Part shown: positions 28,985-63,204 of the stretch, piece by piece | Layout of the letters: every line of letters starts with the position of its first letter | How positions within the stretch are numbered: position 1 is the first letter of the stretch | Source: Pyrenophora tritici-repentis | Lineage: Eukaryota > Ascomycota > Dothideomycetes > Pleosporales > Pleosporaceae | Direction of reading: 5' to 3' | Length of the DNA: 64,000 bases | NCBI RefSeq assembly: GCF_003171515.1 | Contig: NC_089392.1 | Coordinates: 1,612,001 to 1,676,000 of the forward strand | Made by a program: the position numbers and the translations under genes | The notes under the pieces: model-generated | What the model saw: only the letters and a program-made list of their open reading frames with translations | Told to the model about the DNA's origin: nothing | Database searches by the model: none

Positions 28985-29428
28985 GCACCTCTTACCTCAG
29001 CTGGATCATAGATACGTCATGTAAACAGACCCTGCTGCTGCCTTCGTAAAAAGGCGAGCAGACACAAAAACAACACATACAATATACTCTGATTACTGCC
29101 TCGCGCGGACACACTTTGATTGACTGCATATACTGCAACATGTACTGTGGTGGACTTCCGCCGGTGGATCGACTGGTGATCGACAACTACACTCAGATGA
29201 CTTCTGCGGACATTGCCGAGATGCTAGCGCATGCAGGGCTGGAGCCGCTGAATTTCTACCAGACTCCGCAACAATCAAATCAATCAATCTTAAGGTTGTC
29301 GATTGGTTTGATTAGCTTGCGGCGACGCTGCTGATTGATTGCGGATTGATTGTTAGGGTTTTTGAGCAGATTGATTGCGATTGATTGGTTGATTGGCTGA
29401 TTGATGCTAAGAAGTAGTATACAGGGGG

Positions 29429-32139
29429 TTATGGTGTTGTACTCCAGCCTTCTATATCGTACTGTTGTACAATCTCCTCATCTTTGACGTCACTCCACTT
29501 ATCTTCATCATCACCGTTGTTGTACAAGCCGTCAAAGCCAGCTCGTCTCCACGAACGTACAAGCTGAAGGGCAGCAAGTAACTCGCTGCCAAGAGCTCGC
29601 CGGCGCGGCTCAAGTAAATCGCCAAGCTCGCTAAAGAGCCTCTCGCAGTCGCAACTAGATGCTGGTATCGTGAGTATATCAATCGCAAACTGGCTCAAAC
29701 ACGGGTATTTTGAGCGTAATTGAATCCAGTACTTGACTGGGTGGCCATCGCTAAGATACTGTTCGCTTGTCCACTCTGGCTCTTGAGTTCTCCAGCGCTC
29801 GTACTCATCGTCGTGGGCAGCCTCTACCTGAGCCTTGTTGCGCCGTACGAGGGCGCCAATCACATCATCTATTCCTCTATGCCTTGGTTTTGCAGTTGTT
29901 TGAGATAGAGGACGTGTACGTTGAGGCTTATACGACTGCCAGAGCTGCAGGAAGCCAGCGTTGGCTGATGTTAGCCATTCTGGCTTATCCACCCAGCTGT
30001 TCTCGCAGTAGTATTTGTAGTATGGATGGAGGCAGGTAGCAGCGTAGTATGCTGGCGATCGATCGAGCTTGTTGTAGTAATCGTTGGCCTTACTCCAGGC
30101 GGCGCGGAGGTTAACAAAGAGGTGATCTTCAGGCGCATCAGGTGGGTTGAAGTCAACTTGCTCGTACGAGCGCGTACGGGCTTCGAGCGCGCCAAGTACG
30201 TATTCAAATACAGGAATAGTCTCATATATAGCGCCGTATTTGCCTGCCTTTCCGCGACCCTCAAGCTTCTCCGTAGCAAGCTTAAGCGGCTCTAGGCAGT
30301 CCTGATACTCTGTTATCACCGCCCAATCAGCAGCTGTAAGTCCTGTTGATCTCATCCAACTAGGTGCTTCAGGGAGTTTATTGCCACGTTGACAAGCGCG
30401 GCGATCTTCAAGGGAGAGTGCGTTAATGTAGTGCTCAGCGTAAGAGTTGTATGCTGCCTGGAGTTGAGTTGCGCGTTTGAAGGCAGCGTAGTAAGAGTTC
30501 CAGCGTGTAACAACAGGCTTCACAGGCTCAAGTACGTGGAGGCGCTCTCTAGCTGGCAACTCGGCGTTGGCGGCGGTTTGGAAGCTTCGGAAAATTTCGT
30601 GTTGTTGAGGCGTTTTTTATCGCAGTAGACAAGACGTCAACAACTGCATATGAGAACTGCGTTGATTGTCCTACGGAGTAGATACACAAGGTTATATACA
30701 TGAGATGTGCGTAAGCACATGACGGCAAAGGAGTGAAAGTGAAGGTTGTAGAACATTCGGCCAAGAAGCATCGGGCCGATTCCAAGAAGGGTAGTCCTGA
30801 ATGGCAACATTTTTATATGGTTGATAACGTCGATAAGTACACCTAAGGGCCCTTCTTGACGCCACTCCTGCATGTACACCTCCTCTGTTTGGAGCTGCTC
30901 GTCGTTGTTGTTGTTGTACGCCTCTTGATTGCTGCCAAAGATAATTGCCTGGCCAATAAGGTTAAGCGTGTGAGGGCCGCAGCGGAGGCGTCGGTGAGCA
31001 GCGTTGAAGTCGTACGCGTGGGCGAGCGAGGAGACTGCAGTATCGTTGTTTGCAGCATTGTCGAGGACGAAGTAGCCGAGTTTATCACTCCCAATACTGT
31101 ATTCTTGGAGCGTCTTTTTAATTGTATCAGCGATAGCATCACCAGTATGAGAGCCTGCGAGATGTGGGAGGGCGATGGGGAGATCTTGTATCACTCCAGA
31201 GGCGTTAGCAAAGTGTGCAACGACTCCAAAGAATCCACGCTTGCCACCCTTTGTCGTCCAACCATCAAAGCTTATGTGGATCTTGCTTGCAGCTTCTGAC
31301 AGAGCGCAGACAATCTGTGGCTGCATATATTGGAAGAGGCGCATTGCGTAGGTAGCTACACTGCGAGGACTTACCCACAAAGCTGCCTCTGCCTCTGGGT
31401 TTGCAAGGCTAATCATCTCGCGAAAGGACGGCCTTGCAAGTAGCTCCATTGGCAAGTTGTTATCAAGAAGGCAGAACACTGCAACTTCACGAAACTGCTG
31501 GATGTTGAAGTTGCCCATCGCGTTGGCAGCCTCTTGAGAGACTGCAACACCAGTCTCCAGCGTCTGTCGTAGAGAGAGTTGCTGCCCTGTTCTTCGAGGC
31601 TTCAGGCCGTCTTTTGTAAAGCCATGGCCTCGTTTCTGAAGGCCAAGATGAGCTGCAGCTGAGGAGGTGGCCTTTGATACGTCAAAAACTCCACTGCCGC
31701 CAGTGTCAATGACCTTGTGGATGTGGCAGTATTTGCATACAAACCACACTCGATTCTGATCGTAGAGCTCAACAACGCGATATCCATGTTGAAAGATCCA
31801 ACTCTTGACGCGCCGCCCAGTTGTAAGAGGCTTCATGAACCGAGGGAGGCGATCCCAGTTAATGCCGTCAAAGTTATCGCCATTATCAGGCTCTGTATCA
31901 ACACTAGCCTCTGTTGTTGCTGCTGTACCAGCCTGGCTGCCCTCAGCCGCACCCTCCTCCTCTGTTTGCGACTCGAAAAATTGCGACTCAAACGTTGTGG
32001 CCTGGCTTACGGCGGCGCCAAGGGTTTCCTGAGGCGACAGCGATCGCTGAGATAGGACAGAGGGCCTTGATAGGCGCGCCCGTTTGGCGGCGGCGGCGGC
32101 GGCAGCAGTATTGGTGGGAACTCGAGAGCGTTTGGCCAT
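29429..32139 (-). pseudogene. hAT transposase, interrupted
   Basis: Two long ORFs encode one hAT transposase. The first (32139 to about 30637) has an acidic N-terminus, a BED-type zinc finger (WFVCKYCHIHK ... AAHLGLQKRGH) and the RNase H-like core start (KIHISFDGWTTKGG, YFVLDNAANND). The second, open from about 30617 to 29429, carries VVTRWNSYYAAF and the hAT C-terminal dimerisation block (ASSCDCERLFSELGDLL). The join should be NHIK to TPQQHEIF, but about 197 bp with stops lie between (about 30613-30809), flanked by ATAAAAA. No GT-AG intron fits, so this copy is probably inactive. A Gln/Glu-rich insert precedes the break. Confidence 0.85.
30603..30809. repeat. Candidate small insertion inside transposase
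   Basis: A segment of about 200 bp between the two transposase ORFs has TGTTG...CAACA ends on the minus strand and an internal TATATAA, as in a short solo LTR. A direct repeat ATAAAAA occurs at about 30810-30816 and 30614-30620. No matching 5-bp duplication is seen at the TGTTG/CAACA boundaries, so the exact limits are unsure. Confidence 0.35.
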
Positions 32140-34063
32140 CGTGGGCGATACTAAACACTAAAGAAAAATGTCTGTATAGGTAGCTAGGCAACTAGTGTTG
32201 TGTGTAAGGGATTATTAGGGAACTGAGTGAGCGAAATCGTTGTTGTATTAAGAACAGCGAAGGACTAGCTATATAGGTGCGGGGTGAAGCCTAGAAGAGG
32301 CTAGCCCCTAAGCAGAAGGAGCTAGTCCTATAAGAGGAGAGCTAGCTGGTGAGAAGTGAATGCATAGAGACTGGCTTGCCCGGCCGACAGGGATCACAAG
32401 CTAAGCGAGATAGGGGTCCAAGATAACTATCTTCAACACCAAAAACCTTCTCTTAATACGACACTACTCGCCTTACAACTCGTTAATAATAAATCAATCT
32501 AACTAATCAAATCAATCAATCTGACCTTCGCAAGTTGATTTGATTAGCTATTTTGAAAAGCTTAGATTGAGTTGATTGAGTTGGTAAAAACTCCAAATGA
32601 CCAATCAAATCAATCAATCTGACCAATCTGGATTGATTGTTGCGGAGTCTGATTTCTACAATCTAACGAAAGAATGGCTAAAAGCGCAGTGCTTGTTTTA
32701 CGGTCTTATATCACCTGAATCCGCAGAATCACCATCGAAGGACGTCATTTTCGCAAGACTGAAGCAGAATGATAGCAGCTATGGCAACAATATCTCTCCA
32801 GTAAGTTTCCGCTTCATACGTGGAGTATACTTGTGCTAAGTTTCATAGAATAAAGCTGCTGTATTGGAGATATTCCACAATCTGGAGGAACAATGGGCGT
32901 TGTCGTTCCCTCAACATCAAGCTTCGAGGGCTTACTATGAAAACAAGATACTGCATGTTGAGAATGGCTGTTGGTGTTTTGCTACGCACTATACAAGAGA
33001 TCACGATTGGATAGAGACCCCCACGGAAGACAATTGTTCCTCTGTGACAAAGCGAAAGCTGGAGGTTGATAAAGACGCCAAAAGTGAAGAAGACATCAAG
33101 GCATCATCACCAGAGCCAAAACTACAACTGCCCTTTCGGTCTCGCACACCGTCACGCTCCTTACGCAAGAGACAGAGAAAAATGTCGCCATCCCCAGAGC
33201 CCGAGAATTACGAAGAAGTCGTAACATATACGTACGCGGAGCAACCTTCCGAACCACTGCCAGACACTGAGGGCGTCGACCAGGACAAAACATCTCCTTG
33301 TGAAGCTGAACTATTACCATCCCTATCAGCACCGCGGGCCGATTCATCAGTAGTAATTACTGGAGATGTTTTTCTAGACATGCTGTCATCTTACTCGCAT
33401 TGGCACTCGCTCCTCGAACTGAGAGACTACTTTTACAACGTGACAGCCACATATATGATATTCACAGAAGCATTTCAGGGCCTGGGTGCTGACAGTCTGC
33501 GACGTAGCATCAAGATCAACTATCTCAAAGGACATTCGACAAAGTTTGGCGTGCTTGAAGCCTATCTTGACTTTGCTGTAGTTGAAGGTCCAGTAATCCT
33601 AGGGCTCGACAAGAACTTCACTGCCGAGTATCTATGGGCAACTGCAAGTGATAGAGAGCTTTAAAACGAAGAATCAAGGAGAATACATAGGGATGCAATG
33701 ACTGCTTTGGATCGACGACCGGAACGTATCTCAAAAGACGGCCGCCATAATCTGGGTACACTCCACAGGCTACCACCTCTTAACATCGACCTTACACGTG
33801 CGCCCAGTTTCGACTTCCAGTCACGTGTACACATGTCTTGCGATAGATGGAAGAACATGGGGATAAGACATGCCATCAAATCTGGGCACATCAAGTTCGA
33901 CTTGCATTGCCGACGGTTTGAAGGGTGGATTGATTTTGGCGGAGATCATAAGAAAATGGTTGGCTTCAAGGTCTGTGTCAAAAAGAACTCGGATTTTCCA
34001 GTGACATGGTCAGACGTGCCTACTAATATGGTGAATGGTACGGGTACACGGTCGTTCTTGTGA

Positions 34064-44930: not shown

Positions 44931-45058
44931 CAGACTTGTCAACAATCAATCAGATCGGCATGATTGATTCCTATCTAGGTTAAAGGCTGCCTAATGAAGT
45001 AATTCTTTAACCTATATAGGAATCAATCATGTCGATCGATTGATTGTTGACAAGTCTG
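44931..45058. mobile_element. hAT-type MITE 3 (128 bp)
   Basis: 128 bp with about 50-bp imperfect inverted repeats starting CAGACTTGTCAACAATCAAT. Exact 8-bp duplication CTCCCACG at 44923-44930 and 45059-45066. Same length as MITE 2 and related termini (CAGACT..., CAACAATCAA), but a different sub-family. It lies about 350 bp before the ATG of the split gene, just upstream of its TATA box. Confidence 0.92.
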
Positions 45059-45086: not shown

Positions 45087-45711
45087 CACCCCGCACCACT
45101 TTCTAAGCTCTGACTTTTGCGACAAACGTTTTCAAAAACAAATCAACCAAACAAAGCCCCACTAAACGCTGTTTGTCTCACTTCCACTGGATCACACAAA
45201 GAGATTTCACAGTGTCACAGCATTCAACACTGCGCGATTGAACTATCCTAGAGCTTCACATCTGAAACTCATCAAGGTACTTTCTATCTTCATTATCTTA
45301 TCCGGATCGCCCTGTTCCACTAAGCCCAGCCTTAGCTTCACACAGATCAACCTTTTGTCAAGCCTACCCGACTTACTCCTCTATAGTCATCCACGAGCTT
45401 TACACAATGGCACATAACGGAAAGAAGTCGTATGTCTTCGCAACCAAGTCTAAGCCTAAACCTAAGCCTAAGCATTCAAAAGCCTCGAAGAAGGAGAAGT
45501 CCATTCTGCAGTCCGCTCCTTTGCTGAACCACGACGCCAACTTTAACAAGGACGGGCTAATCGAGGGGACTGTGGTCACAGAGGCATCAGTCTCCCAAAC
45601 TAATGGCTTTCCATGCCAAGATGAACTCACCAAAGATACTGGAAAGCCCGACAACAAGTCAACCTTATCGGTTACCTCCGCCATCATTCCAATGTCGCAG
45701 TTGACTACTAC

Positions 45712-45899
45712 TGTAACGGGCTGAGCCTCGAGTCACATGACTAGGCTGCTAGCCTAGTCGCTTCCCCGGCAACGTGAGGGCCGTGCGCCAACCCAAACAA
45801 AGCAGGCTCGCCGCTTGCGTCTTACCTTCTTTCTTCATCTTGACTGTAAATAGCATCTGGACTAGGTAGCTGGAATACAGTCCCTACAGACCGTTCACA
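45712..45899 (+). repeat. 5' LTR of Gypsy element
   Basis: 188 bp, begins TGTAACGGGC and ends GTTCACA. It contains ATCTTGACTGTA at 45837-45848, the exact complement of the primer-binding site. Confidence 0.95.
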
Positions 45900-45911
45900 T
45901 ACAGTCAAGAT
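45900..45911 (+). other. Primer-binding site, likely self-priming
   Basis: TACAGTCAAGAT starts right after the 5' LTR and is the perfect 12-nt reverse complement of 45837-45848 inside the LTR. In Tf1 of fission yeast, the 5' end of the RNA folds back onto such a site to prime reverse transcription without a tRNA. Confidence 0.7.
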
Positions 45912-45918
45912 CAAGAAG

Positions 45919-46017
45919 AACACGCAGAATACGCAGAACACGCAGAACACGCAGAACACGCAGAATACGCAGAATACGCAGAATACGCAGAATACGCAGA
46001 ACACGCAGAACACGCAG
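45919..46017 (+). repeat. 9-bp minisatellite in element leader
   Basis: Eleven head-to-tail copies of AA(C/T)ACGCAG between the primer site and gag. The frames open on the minus strand through this repeat (FCVFCV...) are an artefact. Confidence 0.92.
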
Positions 46018-46036
46018 CAACCAAAGCACCGCTATA

Positions 46037-47233
46037 ATGAGCTCCCCCGGGGATACTGACATGACGACGAACGATTCGAACCAGCTGTTACAGTCGCTAC
46101 TACAGAGACTTGAAGACATGAGCACTAGGATGGAGAGGCTGGAAGCACCATCGCACGAGCTACCTCAAACGCCTGGTCACAATACAGACGCCACCACTGA
46201 TCCAACGCCAACCTCCGAGACTTCGAACACATCTGTGCCTATAACCCCAAAGCCGCGGCACAGCTTACCCCACCCGCCTACGTTTGGTGGAAACAAATCA
46301 CAATGGCGAGGATGGAAGCTAGAGATGGAGGGCAAGATCGAAGAAGACGCGCAAGCTATTGGAAGCCTAAAAGCTCAGCTACGCTACGTCTACATGCGTC
46401 TTGATGGGGCAGCGAAAACCAACGTTACAACATACTACGAGATACAAGTTAAAGAAGAATCGCCAAACCCTTTCAAGCTGCTTGACCGCCTTGAACTCCT
46501 CTACGGCGAACGAAATCGGAAGGAGAAAGCCATTCAGAACCTCTACTCTATACGCCAGAAGGACGACGAGACGTTTATTTCCTTCTATCCACGGTTTGAG
46601 AAAGAGATGGCCAACGCTGACGCAGAAAGCTGGCCTGAGCATACGAAGATATCCTACTTACGCAATGCATTAAGTGGTAGGATAAAGGATAGGCTTGTTG
46701 GTACATCAGGAGCAGAAACAAGCACATACGCAAGGTTCGCTCAGAAGTGTGCAGATCTTAGCAACGACATGGAGTTGTTCGGCCAATGGACGAAAACAAC
46801 CCGCCGTTACGGTAGCCGAACTGCTGAAAATGCACCAACCTATGAACCACCAGCAAAATCAAATAATGCCACGCTCACAGCAGTTTCCCCCGAAGACATG
46901 ATGGAATGGGAACCTACGCAGCCTACAACTACCCAAGTGAACGCTGTCGGCCTCCGCGGCAAGACCAACATGAATGGATATCCATCTAGGCGTCCCGAAG
47001 ACCGAGAACTTATTGGAAAACGAGCAAAATGGGTCAACCAAGAGGAAATCGATGCTCGACGCCAGGAACGACGCTGCCTCCGATGCGGCCGCAACAATTG
47101 CCGAATAGCTACATGCCCGTTAGCAGCCGCTCTACGACCAACTCACGTTAGCGTCAAGACAGCAAAGAGTACTGTGGTCACCAAGGCAGCTGTAGAGGAG
47201 GAAGATCCAGAAGACTCCGAAGCAGAGCAATAG
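46037..47233 (+). CDS. gag: Gypsy gag protein
   Basis: 398 aa structural protein of the retrotransposon, forming virus-like particles in the cytoplasm. The gag core starts near HPPTFGGNKSQWRGWKLEME. The C-terminus has one zinc knuckle, CLRCGRNNCRIATC (about residues 347-360), spaced CX2CX4CX4C: the usual His is Cys. A helical N-terminus (LLQSLLQRLEDMSTRMERLE) may multimerise. It ends with TAG (CAA TAG GAA); pol continues in the same frame. Confidence 0.92.
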   Translation: MSSPGDTDMTTNDSNQLLQSLLQRLEDMSTRMERLEAPSHELPQTPGHNTDATTDPTPTSETSNTSVPITPKPRHSLPHPPTFGGNKSQWRGWKLEMEGKIEEDAQAIGSLKAQLRYVYMRLDGAAKTNVTTYYEIQVKEESPNPFKLLDRLELLYGERNRKEKAIQNLYSIRQKDDETFISFYPRFEKEMANADAESWPEHTKISYLRNALSGRIKDRLVGTSGAETSTYARFAQKCADLSNDMELFGQWTKTTRRYGSRTAENAPTYEPPAKSNNATLTAVSPEDMMEWEPTQPTTTQVNAVGLRGKTNMNGYPSRRPEDRELIGKRAKWVNQEEIDARRQERRCLRCGRNNCRIATCPLAAALRPTHVSVKTAKSTVVTKAAVEEEDPEDSEAEQ

Positions 47234-47281
47234 GAACACGCGGCAGCTCAGAAAGAATGGAAAGAGACCGGAAAGCAAAAG

Positions 47282-50200
47282 ATGGATAGCGATCCCTTTG
47301 TACTGGACGTTAGACTTAATGGAACTGACTTTGTCACTGGACTTGTTGACTCAGGTTGCCTTTGCTATTCTGCCATTAATGAACAACTCTTTCGATCTCT
47401 GAGACTGCCATCAATCAAGATAGCCCCGCGCCAGCTAGAGGAAGCAGCTGGGAAGAACGCAGAACCAAGTACTGTCCTAGATACAGTTACTTACGCCTCG
47501 ATAGACATAGACGGCCACCAGCAGAAACGCGTCTTCTTCTACGTTGTACCTGGCCTAACTTACGACGTGATCCTAGGAAAGCCCTGGTTAGAAGATGCCG
47601 ACGTCACAATTTCGGCCAAACAAGGCTGCCTAGATATCGGCGCGTCAAACATCCGCGCATGGAACCACAAGAAAGCGTCATACAAGCCACCACTAATGAA
47701 GGCTACTCAGGTGATGGCTTCCGCATTCATGGCGGAGGTGAGAAGAAGCCGTAGGAAGAACAAAGGAGACGGTATTGCGCTCGACACTGGACTGTTCGCT
47801 GTTTCCATCGCCGACATTGAGAAAGCTTTGAAACCGCGCAAACGATCCGATCCAAAGACGAAGCTCCCACCCCAGTACCACCAATGGCTGAAGGCTTTCG
47901 ACCATTTCCTAGCTGAGAAACTTCCCCCACATCGTAAAGGCGTTGATCTCCACATTGAGATTGAAAAGGATCAAGACGGAAACGAGAAGACCATTCCATG
48001 GGGTCCGCTCTACGGCATGAGCCGAGAAGAGTTACTAGTGCTTAGGAAAACTCTCACCGAGCTGTTAGACAAGGATTTTATCCGCGCAAGTAACTCTCCC
48101 GCAGCTGCACCCGTCCTGATGGTCAAAAAGCCAGGAGGGGCATCCGATTTTGCGTTGACTACCGAGGCTTGAACAACATCACCAGGAAGGACCGTTACCC
48201 TCTGCCTCTATTCACAGAAACACTGAGAAATGTAGCTAAAGCTAAATGGTTCACAAAACTTGACGTTATCGCAGCCTTCCACAAGATCCGTGTGGCCAAA
48301 GGAGAAGAATGGAAGACAGCTTTCCGAACAAGATACGGCCTATTCGAATGGCGGGTTGCTCCCTTCGGACTAACAGGAGCACCAGCCGCATTTCAACGCT
48401 ACGTAAATGGTGTTCTACAGGATTACCTTGACGACTTTGTTTCAGCCTACGTTGACGACATCTTAATCTACTCGTCAGGATCGCTTCAGGATCACAGAGA
48501 GAAGGTTGGAAAGGTTCTTCAACGCCTTATAGACGCTGGACTGCAGATTGATATCGACAAGTGCGAGTTCGAGACTAAACGAGTCAAATACCTCGGGTAC
48601 ATTGTGGAAGCAGAAGTGGGCATTCGAGTTGATCCTGAAAAGATTATCGCAATCCGCGAATGGGCTACACCAACGTCAGTTAAGGCTATCCGAGCATTTA
48701 TTGGTTTTGCCAACTTTTACCGAGTTTTTATACCAAACTTCTCGGACATTGCTGAACCGCTTATCAACCTAACTAAGAAAGAGATGGTTTTTCATTGGGA
48801 CGAGGCTTGCAATCAAGCATTTGAAACGATTAAGGAACTTCTCATTACAGCACCAATACTCGGCCATTTTGATCCAGAGAAGGACACCTTGGTAGAAGCC
48901 GACTCCTCAGGACATGCAACTGGCGGCCTATTGCTGCAGAAGGACAAGAACAACAACTGGCAACCCGTTGCCTACTACTCAAAGAAGCACTCACCAACAG
49001 AGGCCAATTATCCAATTCATGACAAGGAGCTTCTAGCTATTGTTCGTTGCTTAGAAGCATGGGCTCCTGAACTACGTATGGTTAGGAAGTTCACAGTTCT
49101 GACGGACCACAAGAACCTTCAATACTTCTACCGCGAACGACAGCTGTCTGAAAGACAAGTACGTTGGTCAGAGTTTCTCTCACGATTCGACTTCTCCCTG
49201 GAATGGAAACCTGGAAAGACTATGGGAAAACCTGACGCCCTGTCACGACGAGAACAAGACCTACCCGCCAACTACGACGATGAACGAATACGGTCTCGAT
49301 TTATCCGTCTTTTCCAGAGCAAGCACTTGCAGAGTGTTCAAATCCAGTCCCTGTCGTCCGAGGAGATTGACTTCACAGAAGAGATACGCATGTTTGAGGA
49401 CCAGGACATGCAAAATCTCTGGCACCGAAGCCGCCAAGAGGATAAGCTTTATCAGGAGCTCACTACGCTGGTAGCAAACAAGGAGCGGAACCTCCCTACC
49501 AAACTTCAGAAGGAGAAGTCAGTGAGTATAGCAGAATGCACCCTAGACGAGAGAGGCCTGTTGCGATTTCGAGACCGGATATGGATCCCTGACTGCGAAC
49601 CACTTCGCACACGAATTATTCAAAATATTCACGACTCGCATATCACCGGCCATCCTGGACGAGATCTTACCTACTCAATCTTATCAAGGCAGTTCTTCTG
49701 GTCAGGTGTAGCAAGCGACGTGCGACGCTTTGTCCGTAACTGCGAGATTTGCGGGAGGAATACGATATGGAGAGAGACAAAGAAGGGCCTCCTTAAACCG
49801 CTACCGATCCCAGAACGTATATGGGGAGAACTTTCAATCGATTTTATTACGGACTTGCCGCCATCTGGACGCGATGACGCAACGAACTGCATGGTGGTCA
49901 CTGATCGGCTGACAAAGGGAGTTGAACTGGAAGGCATGCACGATATCTCGGCAGAAGCAGTAGCACAACGGCTTTTAGAACGGCATTACCCTATTCATGG
50001 TATTCCAACGGCAATTACGAGCGATAGAGGACCACAATTCGTCAGCGATCTTTGGAGGCATTTCTGTAAACTCCTCAGCGTTGAGCAACGCCTGTCGACT
50101 GCCTATCATCCGCAAACCGATGGTGCAACAGAGCGAATGAACCAAGAGATTGAGAAGATGATTCGAATCTGGGCCACCTACACGCAAGAAAATTGGCTAG

Positions 50201-50915
50201 CACTTTTACCTATCGTTATGGGAGCAATCAACAATCGCGAGGCCTCATCTACTGGCCTAAGCCCCTTCTATTTTATGCACGGATATCACAATGAACCCAT
50301 TCAGCTGGTAGAGGATCGAACTATTCAGGACCGACCAAAGAGAGACGGCGAAGCACTGGCAGAAGGCTTCCTTAAAAGACTCCAAGACGCAACAGAGTGG
50401 GCCCAAGCTGCGATCGCGATAACACAAGAGAAACAGCAACATCAAGCTAACAAGACAAGAACAGCAGCGCCCCAATACAAGGAGGGAGACTGGGTGTTTT
50501 TGAACCTTAGAAACGTGAAGACAACACGACCTTCCAAGAAGCTAGACTGGTTGCATGGAAAGTACAAAGTCTTGAGGCAGGTCAACTCCCACTCTTATCA
50601 ACTTGACGTTCCGGGAAGATCCATCCTGTCTTCCACGTAGACCTGCTTCGCTACGCGCCTAACGACTCTCTCCCATCGCAGAAGGTTGGAGACACTCAGC
50701 CAGGGCCTATACTTGTAGATGGAGACGAGCTATGGCTGGTTGAACGTATTCTGGGCGAACGCACAACAAGGCAGGGAGGGAAAGAAATCAAGGAGGCATA
50801 TGTGAAGTGGGTGGACTATACTGAACCGACATGGGAACCTGTGAGTAACGTACTAAAGACTGACGCTTGGAGGAAATGGAGAAAACTACGCGCTAAAGGG
50901 AAAGGAGGGGGGTAA
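47282..50915 (+). pseudogene. pol: Gypsy pol polyprotein, two frame breaks
   Basis: Order: protease with DSG at residues 23-25 (LVDSGCLCYS); reverse transcriptase (YVDD at about 48449); RNase H (ADSSGHATGG, DKELLAI, LTDHKNL); integrase with HHCC zinc motif (HDSHITGHPG, CEICG) and D-D-E (SIDFITD, TSDRGPQF, GATERMNQE); and a chromodomain (about 50730-50850, VKWVDYTEPTWEP). The frame breaks after a short G run at 48137-48140 in the first part of reverse transcriptase, and again near 50616 between integrase and chromodomain. Each looks like loss of one base in a homopolymer. The last frame stops at TAA 50913-50915, one base before the 3' LTR. Confidence 0.9.
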
Positions 50916-51103
50916 TGTAACGGGCTGAGCCTCGAGTCACATGACTAGGCTGCTAGCCTAGTCGCTTCCCCGGCAACGTGAGGGCCGTGCGCCAACCCAA
51001 ACAAAGCAGGCTCGCCGCTTGCGTCTTACCTTCTTTCTTCATCTTGACTGTAAATAGCATCTGGACTAGGTAGCTGGAATACAGTCCCTACAGACCGTTC
51101 ACA
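50916..51103 (+). repeat. 3' LTR of Gypsy element
   Basis: 188 bp, identical by eye to the 5' LTR. Preceded by the polypurine tract at 50895-50912. Confidence 0.95.
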
Positions 51104-52765
51104 ACTACCTCACGTCTCACACCACTCCACAGCGACAAGTCGATCACTGAAGATGACTCGATGGGTGTTTCGACATTTATTGCACAACCGGAGTGTTTTC
51201 GATCTTCGGCCCTCGAGTATTCCGACGGTGAAGACATCCTTGTTGTCGAGGAAGAGATCATTGCAATAGAAGACCTCTCGACTGCGCAAGGTCAAGTTGC
51301 TGATCCTGAGGCATTTTTGGACACTATGGATTGCACTAGTGCCGAGAATGGTTGTGCTTTGTCTGTAGTGTCGAGCGCTGGCTTTGGAGGCAGCGATTCT
51401 GACATACCTGATCGCGTACAGAGGCTGGTGGATACACCAGAATCGCTCAGCTCTACCGCAAAAAACCCAGAACCCGAAGGCCGTAGCAAGTCCTATTCCC
51501 CAAGGAAGTCTTCTAGACGCCCTTTCATGAATTCTTATCAGTCTCTAGGCCCAAGCATCATGTTTGCCTCATTGTTCGGTACAGAGCCTATCTCAGCCTA
51601 TTACACTGTTCCGAATTATCCTTCCACTCATGAGGCTTCTGGAACATCGCACACGGTCCATTCAGAGTCTTTGTTATATCAGGATGTCGAAAACGCTCTC
51701 AATACTGCCGATGTTACCACAGACGCAGACTCTGAACCGGTAGGAGCGGGCAAGTTGGAGTCCACAGACTTTCGCAGCTCTGACCCATCATCCGAAGAAG
51801 TTTGTGTCCCATTCGCTGGAAAGATGGCACTCTTGCAAGCTATGGCTACTGATCCCGTGCTGGATGGCGTAGTGTTTTGCAAAGATGATACCAACCCAAT
51901 ACTGTATGAGCAAGAGCCTATCCCAGATATCGACCCAGACTTCTCGGATGATGAAGAGGACTATCTGCATACGTACAATGCCCTAGTTTCTATATCAGCC
52001 ACTTCATCACCTCCGGTTTTGTATGATAAAAAGCCTATCCCAGACGTCGACCCAGACTGTTCCGATGATGAGGACTACTTGCGTACGTGCAATGCCCTAG
52101 CTTCCTCATCACCCCCTACACCATCTCCAGGTAAGGGAGTTGGAGGCGGGTTCTTCAGCCTCGGCACTGTCTTGAGGAAGACTTTCATAAGCTATCACGA
52201 GTCCGGTGGGCCAGATACACCTAAGTCTGATGTTTCCATTGCCTTTAGAAATTCTTCTCAGTCTTCTCGGGTGTCTGATTCGTCAACTGACTTCCACATG
52301 AACAACACGTTCTTGGGAAGCACCTCCGCTCGCGACTTGCTTGACCGCGCGACATCAGGATACAATGGCATGGTCTCTCGGAAGGCAATTGCTGCAGCTT
52401 TCGTTCGATGTGTTGCGGATGAACACGCAGATATGCGCTCTGTGAGTCCCGGTGTAGATGCACCTGGTGTTACTTTCATCACGGAGAACGACGTTGACCA
52501 ATGCATGTCATTTGAGACTCAACGTCGCGCAAAGCTCGGCTATACATTACTTTTCAAGTTTTTGAAGATGATTGAGTTTGACGATGCGGCCATGGCTACC
52601 GACACCGATTTCCTTGATGCGTGGCGCAAAGCCGCTCTGGAGTCACGCGAGCTTACAAAGTCTGCGAAGAATAGCCCTGCGTCGCGTGCAGCACGTCGCA
52701 TCTCCCAATCTCGCTCTGAATCTGAGCAGTCTCGTGGCCGACCTCGCGTGCGTCCTGCCGCTTAA

Positions 52766-61560: not shown

Positions 61561-63204
61561 TCATACATCGCCCCTATACCCCTTCTCCCTCTCCATAAAC
61601 GTGCCATGAAACCCAAAGCTCATCGGACCCTGCATGTACGCCCTCCCCACCTCCGTCAAATCCTTCGCCTTCAACACCAGCAGATAGCTCTTCTCCTTGT
61701 GTCCATCCAACACCACGCTCAGCAACACGCCATCATCTTCCTCAGTACCCTCCGGATCCGCAACGAAGATGGCTTCACCGGGTGTATGTCCCTCTTCCTC
61801 CCAGAAGATAGATTTTTTAGTCTGATTGTCAAACTTGACGAGGCCGTCGAAGAACGTCGACTTGAGACGATCGGCACATCCGTATGTGTAGCGGTGCTGA
61901 CGCGTAATGTACGCGGGATTGCAGGTAGGAAGTTCCATGGAGTCAAACTTCTCGGCTTGAAAGAGGAGTTCAGCGGGCATGGGTGTGGCGGTCGGGACGC
62001 CGGCGTCGACGCTAGGGAGGCGGAACTGCGCTTGCATAGGGAGAGAAGACATACGATTTTCGCCGGTGAATTCAGGGGTGTCAATGGAAGAGATGATGCT
62101 GTCGTAGTAGAAGCGCTTGACAACGTCCAAGTTCTCGAACATGCTGAGCTCGGTGATGATATCGGTTTTGCTGGGGTCGGAAGGGGATGGCTGTTCCCAG
62201 GCGTTGATACTGTGGAAGCAGAAGAAAGGGATGCTTTCGTATGTTGCTACCAATCCCTTTCCATGTACCCGGTCGACGACGTACCAGGTAGATTTTGAGT
62301 TGGGGTCGAAGGGAGAGATGGAGTCGATGATATTCTTGTGCCACATGAGCGAGAGGCCGCTCCATGAGATGTGACTGCTCCAGACGCAGAGGATGACATA
62401 GTTCTCTGTCAGGAAGAGCGAGTGGATGTATGCCGGCATTCCGTTGAAAGTCGCAAGGATGTCTGTCTCGCCTGTGGATGCGGATACCCGGAATAGGCGG
62501 TAAGTGCTTTTGTAGCCAAAGTCGAGATTGAAATTATACATGTCTCCGTTCTTTGGGTCAGACTTGGCGTGCGCAGCGGAGAAGGGCCCTTTCAATTCTG
62601 GGTGGAGAGAAGCCTGAGACGCAAACCCGGTCGGTTCTAGCGTCTCTGGATCGATCTGCTTAATGTTGGCAGAATCTGTTTTCACGTGCAGAGTCTGAAG
62701 GCCATTCGTATGCCCATTGATCCCAGACTTCTCAGTACCACCGATCTTATGTCCGCCGGGCATGTTGATAGATAGTGTAACTCCGATGTTTCTCTCGTTG
62801 GGCGCAGACTGGAAGAAGGCCATGACTTTGCTGAAGAAGCTGTTGCAAGGATCCCGCTTCGCTGCGAAGGTCACACTGTCAAGCTTCCCTGTCTTTCTCA
62901 CCGTCTCAATATACTCATCTACTGTGCGTCGAGAACGGTATGTGACCTTTGGTGGACCATTCGCGGCAGGAAAGTCGATTTGGAAGCGGTGAACACAAGA
63001 AAAGCCGTCAAACCAATGCTTTGCAGACCAGATCTTTCCATCATCTGTTTTCGCTTTATATCCGAGCGGCCCTGTTCGATATAGGACTCCTGCAGCGTAT
63101 CGCGGTATCTCACCCTTTACGGTGAGTTCGACAGGTTCATGTTCTTGATAGTCTGTATCGAAGCCCGCCGTGTTTGGCCATACATCCGTAGTCGCGACGA
63201 CCAT
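61561..63204 (-). CDS. Carotenoid cleavage oxygenase family protein
   Basis: 547 aa, one exon. Non-heme iron(II) dioxygenase of the CCD/RPE65 family that splits a double bond of carotenoids or stilbenes. The four iron-binding His are visible in order: SAAHAKSD, AYIHSLFLTE, FCFHSINAWE and GFHGTF near the C-terminus. EHEPVELTVKGEIPRYAAG and LYRTGPLGY are the usual start of the family. There is no signal peptide. In fungi such enzymes make apocarotenoids (for example from torulene) or cut stilbenes such as resveratrol; length and motifs do not decide which. No carotenoid gene lies nearby in the window. Confidence 0.92.
   Translation of the reverse strand: MVVATTDVWPNTAGFDTDYQEHEPVELTVKGEIPRYAAGVLYRTGPLGYKAKTDDGKIWSAKHWFDGFSCVHRFQIDFPAANGPPKVTYRSRRTVDEYIETVRKTGKLDSVTFAAKRDPCNSFFSKVMAFFQSAPNERNIGVTLSINMPGGHKIGGTEKSGINGHTNGLQTLHVKTDSANIKQIDPETLEPTGFASQASLHPELKGPFSAAHAKSDPKNGDMYNFNLDFGYKSTYRLFRVSASTGETDILATFNGMPAYIHSLFLTENYVILCVWSSHISWSGLSLMWHKNIIDSISPFDPNSKSTWYVVDRVHGKGLVATYESIPFFCFHSINAWEQPSPSDPSKTDIITELSMFENLDVVKRFYYDSIISSIDTPEFTGENRMSSLPMQAQFRLPSVDAGVPTATPMPAELLFQAEKFDSMELPTCNPAYITRQHRYTYGCADRLKSTFFDGLVKFDNQTKKSIFWEEEGHTPGEAIFVADPEGTEEDDGVLLSVVLDGHKEKSYLLVLKAKDLTEVGRAYMQGPMSFGFHGTFMEREKGYRGDV

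What the first reader, a model, noticed from the sequence alone, without database searches (positions are those of the whole stretch)
45407..52765. Recent Gypsy insertion splits a host gene; the empty site can be rebuilt in frame
Seen: left block ends at ACTAC (45707-45711), element TGTAAC...TTCACA, right block restarts at ACTAC (51104-51108). Dropping the element and one ACTAC gives a single open frame of 653 codons across both blocks. Identical LTRs mean the split is young. The right half still has an ATG (51161), so a shorter protein may be made, perhaps from the LTR promoter.
Basis: seen in the sequence. Interest (0 to 1): 0.8.

Follow-up and report, generated by a model that had tools for sequence, protein, structure and literature searches.

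The report
Young retrotransposon splits a fungal gene
In one isolate of the wheat tan-spot fungus a self-copying retrotransposon has recently jumped into the middle of a gene of unknown function, and another isolate of the same species still carries that gene whole; it is a clear example of a known kind of event.

Summary
A 5,392-bp Ty3/Gypsy element (45712-51103) with identical 188-bp LTRs sits between two ACTAC copies inside a reading frame. The predicted empty allele exists as a protein: Pyrenophora tritici-repentis L13192_04588, 653 aa, matches the left piece 101/101 and the right piece 549/551. Proteins of four related taxa also begin with the left block, so the finding's own refutation test fails. 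The window appears to be chromosome 3 of isolate M4 (contig lengths). The element is a chromodomain Gypsy with a 12-nt self-priming signature and an in-frame gag stop. Of 17 other full-length copies compared, one shows no substitution over 5.39 kb, so the family moved recently. Two corrections. Identical LTRs are weak dating evidence, because 16 of 17 other copies also have identical pairs. The proposed restart at ATG 51161 is handicapped by a better-placed out-of-frame ATG at 51153, though a protein from there would keep the conserved C-terminal region. The window copy has two private one-base frame breaks in pol, possibly assembly errors. The split gene's function is unknown. Ordinary in kind, but clean.

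The parts
45407..45711 (+). 5' part of the host gene: codons 1-101 plus two bases, ending in the first ACTAC
   Evidence: 101 of 101 residues identical to P0001
45707..45711 (.). target-site duplication, left copy (ACTAC)
45712..51103 (+). full-length Ty3/Gypsy chromodomain retrotransposon, 5,392 bp
45712..45899 (+). 5' LTR, 188 bp
   Evidence: identical to the 3' LTR
45837..45848 (+). 12 nt in the LTR complementary to the first 12 nt after the LTR: inferred 5' end of the RNA (self-primer)
45900..45911 (+). primer-binding site, self-priming type, directly after the 5' LTR
45917..46017 (+). 9-bp tandem repeat in the leader, about 11 copies; copies in the genome differ here by multiples of 9 bp
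46037..47233 (+). gag ORF ending in TAG; the next ORF is in the same frame
   Evidence: PF03732 above cut-off; TAG kept in 17 of 17 other copies
47282..48172 (+). pol, protease part and start of the RT region; this frame ends after a private one-base deletion
   Evidence: PF13650 above cut-off
48169..50640 (+). pol, RT-RNase H-integrase; this frame ends after a second private one-base deletion
   Evidence: PF00078, PF17917, PF17919, PF17921, PF00665 above cut-off
50622..50912 (+). pol C-terminus with chromodomain, in another frame in this copy
   Evidence: PF00385 E 1.2e-5, 25.6 bits against cut-off 25.1
50895..50915 (+). polypurine tract and pol stop codon, directly before the 3' LTR
   Evidence: sequence
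50916..51103 (+). 3' LTR, 188 bp
51104..51108 (.). target-site duplication, right copy (ACTAC)
51109..52765 (+). 3' part of the host gene: last base of the split codon, 551 complete codons and the stop
   Evidence: 549 of 551 residues identical to P0001
51153..51269 (+). out-of-frame 38-codon ORF whose ATG precedes the in-frame ATG 51161
51161..52765 (+). longest ATG-started ORF left in the right half, 534 aa; keeps the conserved C-terminal region

Best explanation
A self-primed, chromodomain-bearing Ty3/Gypsy retrotransposon inserted recently into codon 102 of a single-copy gene, uninterrupted by introns, on chromosome 3 of what appears to be P. tritici-repentis isolate M4. SHOWN: insert limits, 5-bp duplication, an uninterrupted protein in another isolate, near-identical copies elsewhere in the genome, domain content, 12-nt complementarity between LTR and primer site. 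INFERRED: integrase made a staggered cut and the gaps were filled, duplicating ACTAC; reverse transcription was primed by the folded-back 5' end of the element's own RNA; the allele here is null or near-null, because a transcript from the host promoter would give only a 105-aa product from the N-terminus, which is predicted disordered. Any use of the right half would need a start in the LTR or downstream plus leaky scanning past ATG 51153.
For: LTRs, TSD, frame. P0001, 653 aa: left 101/101, right 549/551, the one residue between them (T102) being the split codon. Relatives carry the left block ahead of the conserved C-terminus: P. teres f. maculata 58% over 101 aa, P. seminiperda 40% over 75, Decorospora 56% over 43. 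No second copy of either half found in the genome, only two weak C-terminal matches. 17 other full-length copies: 16 of 17 with perfect 5-bp TSDs, 16 of 17 with identical LTR pairs; the C27 copy differs by 0 substitutions and five 1-base gaps. 12-nt self-primer complementarity in the window copy; one search scored it in 16 of 17 others and the printed letters show it in the 17th. Pfam domains.
Against: No DNA of an empty site could be examined, only the protein of another isolate, because the DNA collections used here hold no other genome of this fungus. Whether the 3.3-Mb L13-192 contig has the same flanks is not shown. No expression data. The window copy's pol is interrupted twice, so this copy as assembled could not make a complete pol.
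Confidence: 0.95

Rival explanations
1. Assembly artefact: a repeat wrongly joined into the gene.
For: Long-read assembly; one-base gaps scattered among copies suggest imperfect polishing in repeats.
Against: A perfect 5-bp duplication at exact LTR ends with gene sequence on both sides is not what a mis-join gives; the near-identical C27 and C5 copies have other TSDs, AGAAA and AACTC.
Confidence: 0.02
2. Two separate genes that happen to be in phase, with the element between them.
For: Right half has its own ATG and a 534-aa ORF; 7.2% of random window positions lie in an open span at least as long.
Against: P0001 contains both pieces as one 653-aa protein; the four other proteins found begin with the left block.
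Confidence: 0.01
3. Gain of function: the 3' LTR drives an N-truncated 534-aa protein that keeps the conserved C-terminal region.
For: The inferred LTR start (pairing segment, 51041 in the 3' LTR) lies upstream of 51161; the parts modelled with fair confidence lie at about residues 511-540 and 581-630, while the N-terminus is predicted disordered; the C-terminal region is the one shared with paralogues.
Against: The first ATG after that start, 51153, is out of frame and in better context (A at -3 against T for 51161) and overlaps the in-frame start. No RNA evidence.
Confidence: 0.1
4. Older insertion whose LTRs and body were kept alike by gene conversion, rather than a young one.
For: LTR identity is seen in 16 of 17 other copies, including all six of a subfamily 2.5-3.3% away, so LTR identity alone cannot date.
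Against: An uninterrupted protein in the same species with 2 of 551 residue differences in the right half; 0-3 substitutions to 6 of the 11 other close copies, 7-12 to the remaining five; both host halves undecayed.
Confidence: 0.05

Closest known systems
Tf1/sushi-type self-priming chromoviruses (Tf1 of Schizosaccharomyces pombe, Tj1 of S. japonicus)
   Same: Ty3/Gypsy order; primer-binding site complementary to the presumed 5' end of the element's own RNA instead of to a tRNA (stated for Tj1, and Tf1 named as first case, in PMC4600332, passages); Tj1 also has a stop codon between gag and pol (same passages).
   Different: Transcript start not mapped here; no RT tree made; Tj1 integrates upstream of Pol III genes (title of PMC4600332), whereas this copy lies in a coding exon. 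The group name Tf1/sushi is recalled.
Gypsy elements surveyed in P. tritici-repentis Pt-1C-BFP (PMC2864245, passages)
   Same: Same host species, survey centred on chromodomain Gypsy elements; the table row for this genome reads 37.8 and 118 (column headings not seen).
   Different: Their sequences were not seen, so whether this family is among them is untested.
5.4-kb Gypsy LTR element present in BFP and absent in M4 near a toxin locus (PMC5913888, passages)
   Same: Class and length (5,392 bp here); presence/absence between isolates, which that paper reads as recent transposon activity.
   Different: Not compared by sequence; here the presence is in the M4-like genome and within a gene of unknown function.
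MITEs of P. tritici-repentis (one family with more than 200 members, PMC3538342, passages)
   Same: The 128-bp hairpin at 44931-45058 is a many-copy, rather uniform MITE with 8-bp TSDs.
   Different: Identity with the published family not verified.

Membership tests
Ty3/Gypsy LTR retrotransposon | domain order gag - protease - RT - RNase H - integrase | tested here: met
   Pfam hits in that order over three ORFs
Ty3/Gypsy LTR retrotransposon | LTRs with TG...CA ends and a short (here 5-bp) target duplication | tested here: met
   window copy; 5-bp duplication in 16 of 17 other full-length copies
Chromovirus | chromodomain at the C-terminus of integrase | tested here: met
   PF00385 25.6 bits against cut-off 25.1; in this copy it lies in another frame than integrase
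Chromovirus | RT placement within the chromovirus clade | not tested
   no tree made
Tf1/sushi self-priming group | primer-binding site complementary to an LTR segment, no tRNA-type TGG site | tested here: met
   12 of 12 nt directly after the LTR; begins TAC, no TGG in the first 13 nt; one search scored the pairing in 16 of 17 other copies, and the letters printed for the 17th (L016, one base out of register) show it too. The segments do not vary, so there is no covariation test
Tf1/sushi self-priming group | RNA actually starts at the pairing segment and primes from it | not testable with these tools
   needs 5' RACE
hAT-type MITE (upstream hairpin) | 8-bp target duplication, CAG...CTG inverted ends, too short for a transposase | tested here: met
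   7 of 8 loci examined have a perfect 8-bp duplication and 128-bp length; the eighth (L039) lacks the exact right end. That these features mark hAT is recalled

The most novel reading that the evidence does not exclude
A still-mobile, self-primed chromodomain Gypsy family has recently multiplied in this isolate with little sign of RIP, and this insertion has converted a Pleosporales gene into an LTR-driven, N-terminally shortened form that keeps its conserved C-terminal region, so that isolates differ in both gene structure and regulation at this locus.
Probability: 0.1. Interest if true: 0.5.

Novelty: new member of a known kind. Interest (0 to 1): 0.3.

Why it matters
It gives a clean presence/absence insertion in a coding exon of a crop pathogen. 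It also shows that at least one Gypsy family in this genome is young: 18 full-length copies examined, and no substitution between the window copy and the C27 copy. [quoted passage not shown] these elements measure 5,204 bp from LTR start to LTR start here, and 5,160 bp or more in the other 17 (from lengths), so that step would probably have passed them over. The same paper also reports a Gypsy element near the toxin locus as a site of recent activity, and its RepeatMasker step may well have covered this family, so this is a refinement and not a contradiction. The gene that is hit belongs to a family without a Pfam domain.

Tried and rejected
Rejected: 'two genes in phase' (uninterrupted protein); 'LTR identity proves youth' (16 of 17 other copies share it); 'element prefers genes' (of 17 other sites 3 have compatible open spans of 300 codons or more: C9b lies beside a Copia gag-pol frame; C2's right piece looks by eye like a hAT C-terminus, a recalled motif, while its left piece had no Pfam hit; the third, C5b, was not resolved). 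The random-site control (33.5% of 2,380 positions at 300 codons or more) comes from this 64-kb window only, which may be richer in genes than the genome.

Led nowhere: Pfam and PDB sequence searches of the host pieces (nothing credible); profile search with the five-protein alignment (3 proteins, all already known); fold search of the model (48 matches, none at E 0.001, best E 0.13; several top rows are calcium-binding proteins of EF-hand type as I recall them, a lead at most; no further fold search was made). Searches of print: L13-192 with the species name (0 papers); retrotransposon insertion with polymorphism and the species name (4 papers, none on this fungus by title); species with Gypsy, LTR, insertion (30 papers, 20 listed); species with Gypsy, LTR, long-read since 2022 (6 papers). 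I saw no description of this insertion in those listings, but read only passages of six papers (PMC5913888, PMC9594970, PMC7507622, PMC3538342, PMC2864245, PMC4600332). Model quality is low (mean pLDDT 45.6, pTM 0.31).

Dropped before counts: 3 of 20 fetched copies (L023, L024, L031), because no full-length element with both ends lay in the stretch fetched. One search scored only 40 of 140 candidates, 40 of 286 and 40 of 393, so copy numbers are lower bounds.

Full report
WHERE THE WINDOW LIES. The own genome has 40.9 Mb in 41 contigs. The eight large contig lengths that I saw (C1 9.91, C2 5.08, C3 3.66, C4 3.16, C5 3.39, C6 3.06, C9 2.18, C10 4.31 Mb; C7 and C8 not seen) match the chromosome table of isolate M4 in PMC7507622 (passages: 41 scaffolds; 9.91, 5.07, 3.65, 3.15, 3.38, 3.05, 2.17, 4.30 Mb). 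I take the window as chromosome 3:1,612,001-1,676,000 of Pyrenophora tritici-repentis M4; this is inference from lengths plus the near-identical protein.

THE OBSERVATION. Both LTRs are 188 bp and identical, flanked by ACTAC on both sides. The left reading frame starts at ATG 45407 and is cut after 101 codons and two bases; the right frame is open from inside the 3' LTR to 52765. The phases agree.

THE EMPTY ALLELE. Searching with the right piece alone found five proteins. P0001 (L13192_04588, P. tritici-repentis, 653 aa; the cluster stands for 8 member sequences on 2 contigs) matches the left piece 101/101 and the right piece 549/551, and the one residue between them is the codon that the insertion splits. 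The other four proteins (two forms of P. teres, P. seminiperda, Decorospora gaudefroyi) also begin with the left block (pairwise for three of the four), so the stated refutation, orthologues beginning at 51161 without the left block, fails in 4 of 4. The P. teres gene models are shorter in the middle (389 and 405 aa); whether that is real or annotation was not tested.

THE ELEMENT. Retrotrans_gag, aspartyl protease, RVT_1, RNase H, integrase zinc-binding and core and a chromodomain give a chromodomain Gypsy. Directly after the 5' LTR lie 12 nt that are the exact complement of 12 nt inside the LTR; the site begins TAC, not TGG, so the element is of the self-priming kind known from Tf1 and Tj1 (PMC4600332, passages). 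One search scored the pairing in 16 of 17 other full-length copies; the 17th, L016, is one base out of register and its printed letters show the same segments. They do not vary, so they give no covariation. gag and protease are in one frame separated by a TAG kept in 17 of 17 other copies, including the six of a subfamily 2.5-3.3% away, which suggests programmed read-through (inferred).

AGE. One 188-bp pair without a difference allows up to about 1.6% divergence (3/188). The window copy against the C27 copy shows 0 substitutions and five single-base gaps, an upper bound near 0.056% (3/5,391); at recalled rates of about 1e-9 to 1e-8 per site and year this is roughly 30,000 to 300,000 years at most since their common source. 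Of the 11 other copies of the same subfamily, six differ from the window copy by 0-3 substitutions and five by 7-12. 16 of 17 other copies have identical LTR pairs; the exception, L016, has a one-base gap (99.5%; the count of 100 is an artefact of comparing position by position across that gap). RIP indices of the copies are unremarkable (TpA/ApT 0.90-0.94), in keeping with the low RIP reported for this species (PMC5913888 and PMC9594970, passages).

STATE OF THIS COPY. Alone among the 18 it carries two one-base deletions in homopolymer runs that break the pol frame, one in the RT region and one between integrase and chromodomain. Other copies have their own scattered single-base gaps, so residual assembly error is as likely as real decay.

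TARGET SITES. For 17 other copies I measured compatible open spans over the insertion point: 3 of 17 reach 300 codons, against 33.5% of 2,380 random window positions; of those three, one adjoins a Copia frame, one is probably a hAT transposase (by eye) and one is unresolved. The window insertion is thus the only demonstrated host-gene hit among 18 examined; selection against others would give the same picture.

THE HOST GENE. No credible Pfam or PDB relative. Only one copy was found; two distant paralogues share the C-terminal region (E 2.2e-4 and 7.4e-4). Comparing the profile of 22 of these with that of the five proteins joins them over 113 columns, probability 96.7%, E 4e-10. The model is mostly disordered, with fair confidence only at about residues 511-540 and 581-630, in helices; fold search gave no match at E 0.001 or better. 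The N-terminus is lysine-rich with no visible secretion signal (by eye, no predictor run), so nothing marks it as an effector.

WHAT THE ALLELE CAN MAKE. From the host promoter: a 105-aa product (101 host codons and four at the LTR). From the 3' LTR, if the RNA starts at the self-primer segment (51041), the first ATG is 51153, out of frame with an A at -3 and a 38-codon frame; the in-frame 51161 comes second with a T at -3. I therefore rate the N-truncated protein possible but unlikely.

SURROUNDINGS. 348 bp upstream of the ATG ends a 128-bp near-perfect hairpin (44931-45058; folding z-score -17) flanked by CTCCCACG twice, a hAT-type MITE with about 40 places scored out of 286 candidates. A hAT transposon with matching ends (29260-32651, TSD ATTTCTAC) lies in the same window; in the rows only it and C5:117487-120878 match across its positions 1359-1550, so a 192-bp stretch splits its transposase frame. 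Its 3' end, read inwards, shares 18 of the first 21 bases with the MITE (counted by eye).

VERDICT.

Noticed in passing
44931-45058: 128-bp foldback MITE with CAG...CTG ends and 8-bp duplication CTCCCACG, upstream of the split gene; about 40 places scored in the genome (40 of 286 candidates), about half of them 98-100% identical.
   Followed up: partly
29260-32651: hAT transposon with perfect 8-bp duplication; its transposase frame is interrupted at 30618-30809 by a 192-bp stretch (about 187 bp plus a TTTTT duplication, solo-LTR-like). In the rows only one further copy (C5:117487-120878) carries it, so the interrupted form seems to have moved.
   Followed up: partly
45917-46017: 9-bp minisatellite in the retrotransposon leader that changes length by multiples of 9 bp among copies.
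   Followed up: partly
L027 (C9:264792-271092): Full-length copy without a matching 5-bp duplication (GTATC/TGGGT), beside a Copia gag-pol frame: probably a recombined or rearranged copy.
   Followed up: no
61561-63204: RPE65-family (carotenoid oxygenase-like) ORF on the minus strand, PF03055 E 1.2e-108.
   Followed up: no
L010 and L011: Two distant paralogues of the split gene; L010's family has no Pfam hit and 124 database matches. The model of the split gene's C-terminus gave only sub-threshold fold matches, several to calcium-binding proteins.
   Followed up: partly
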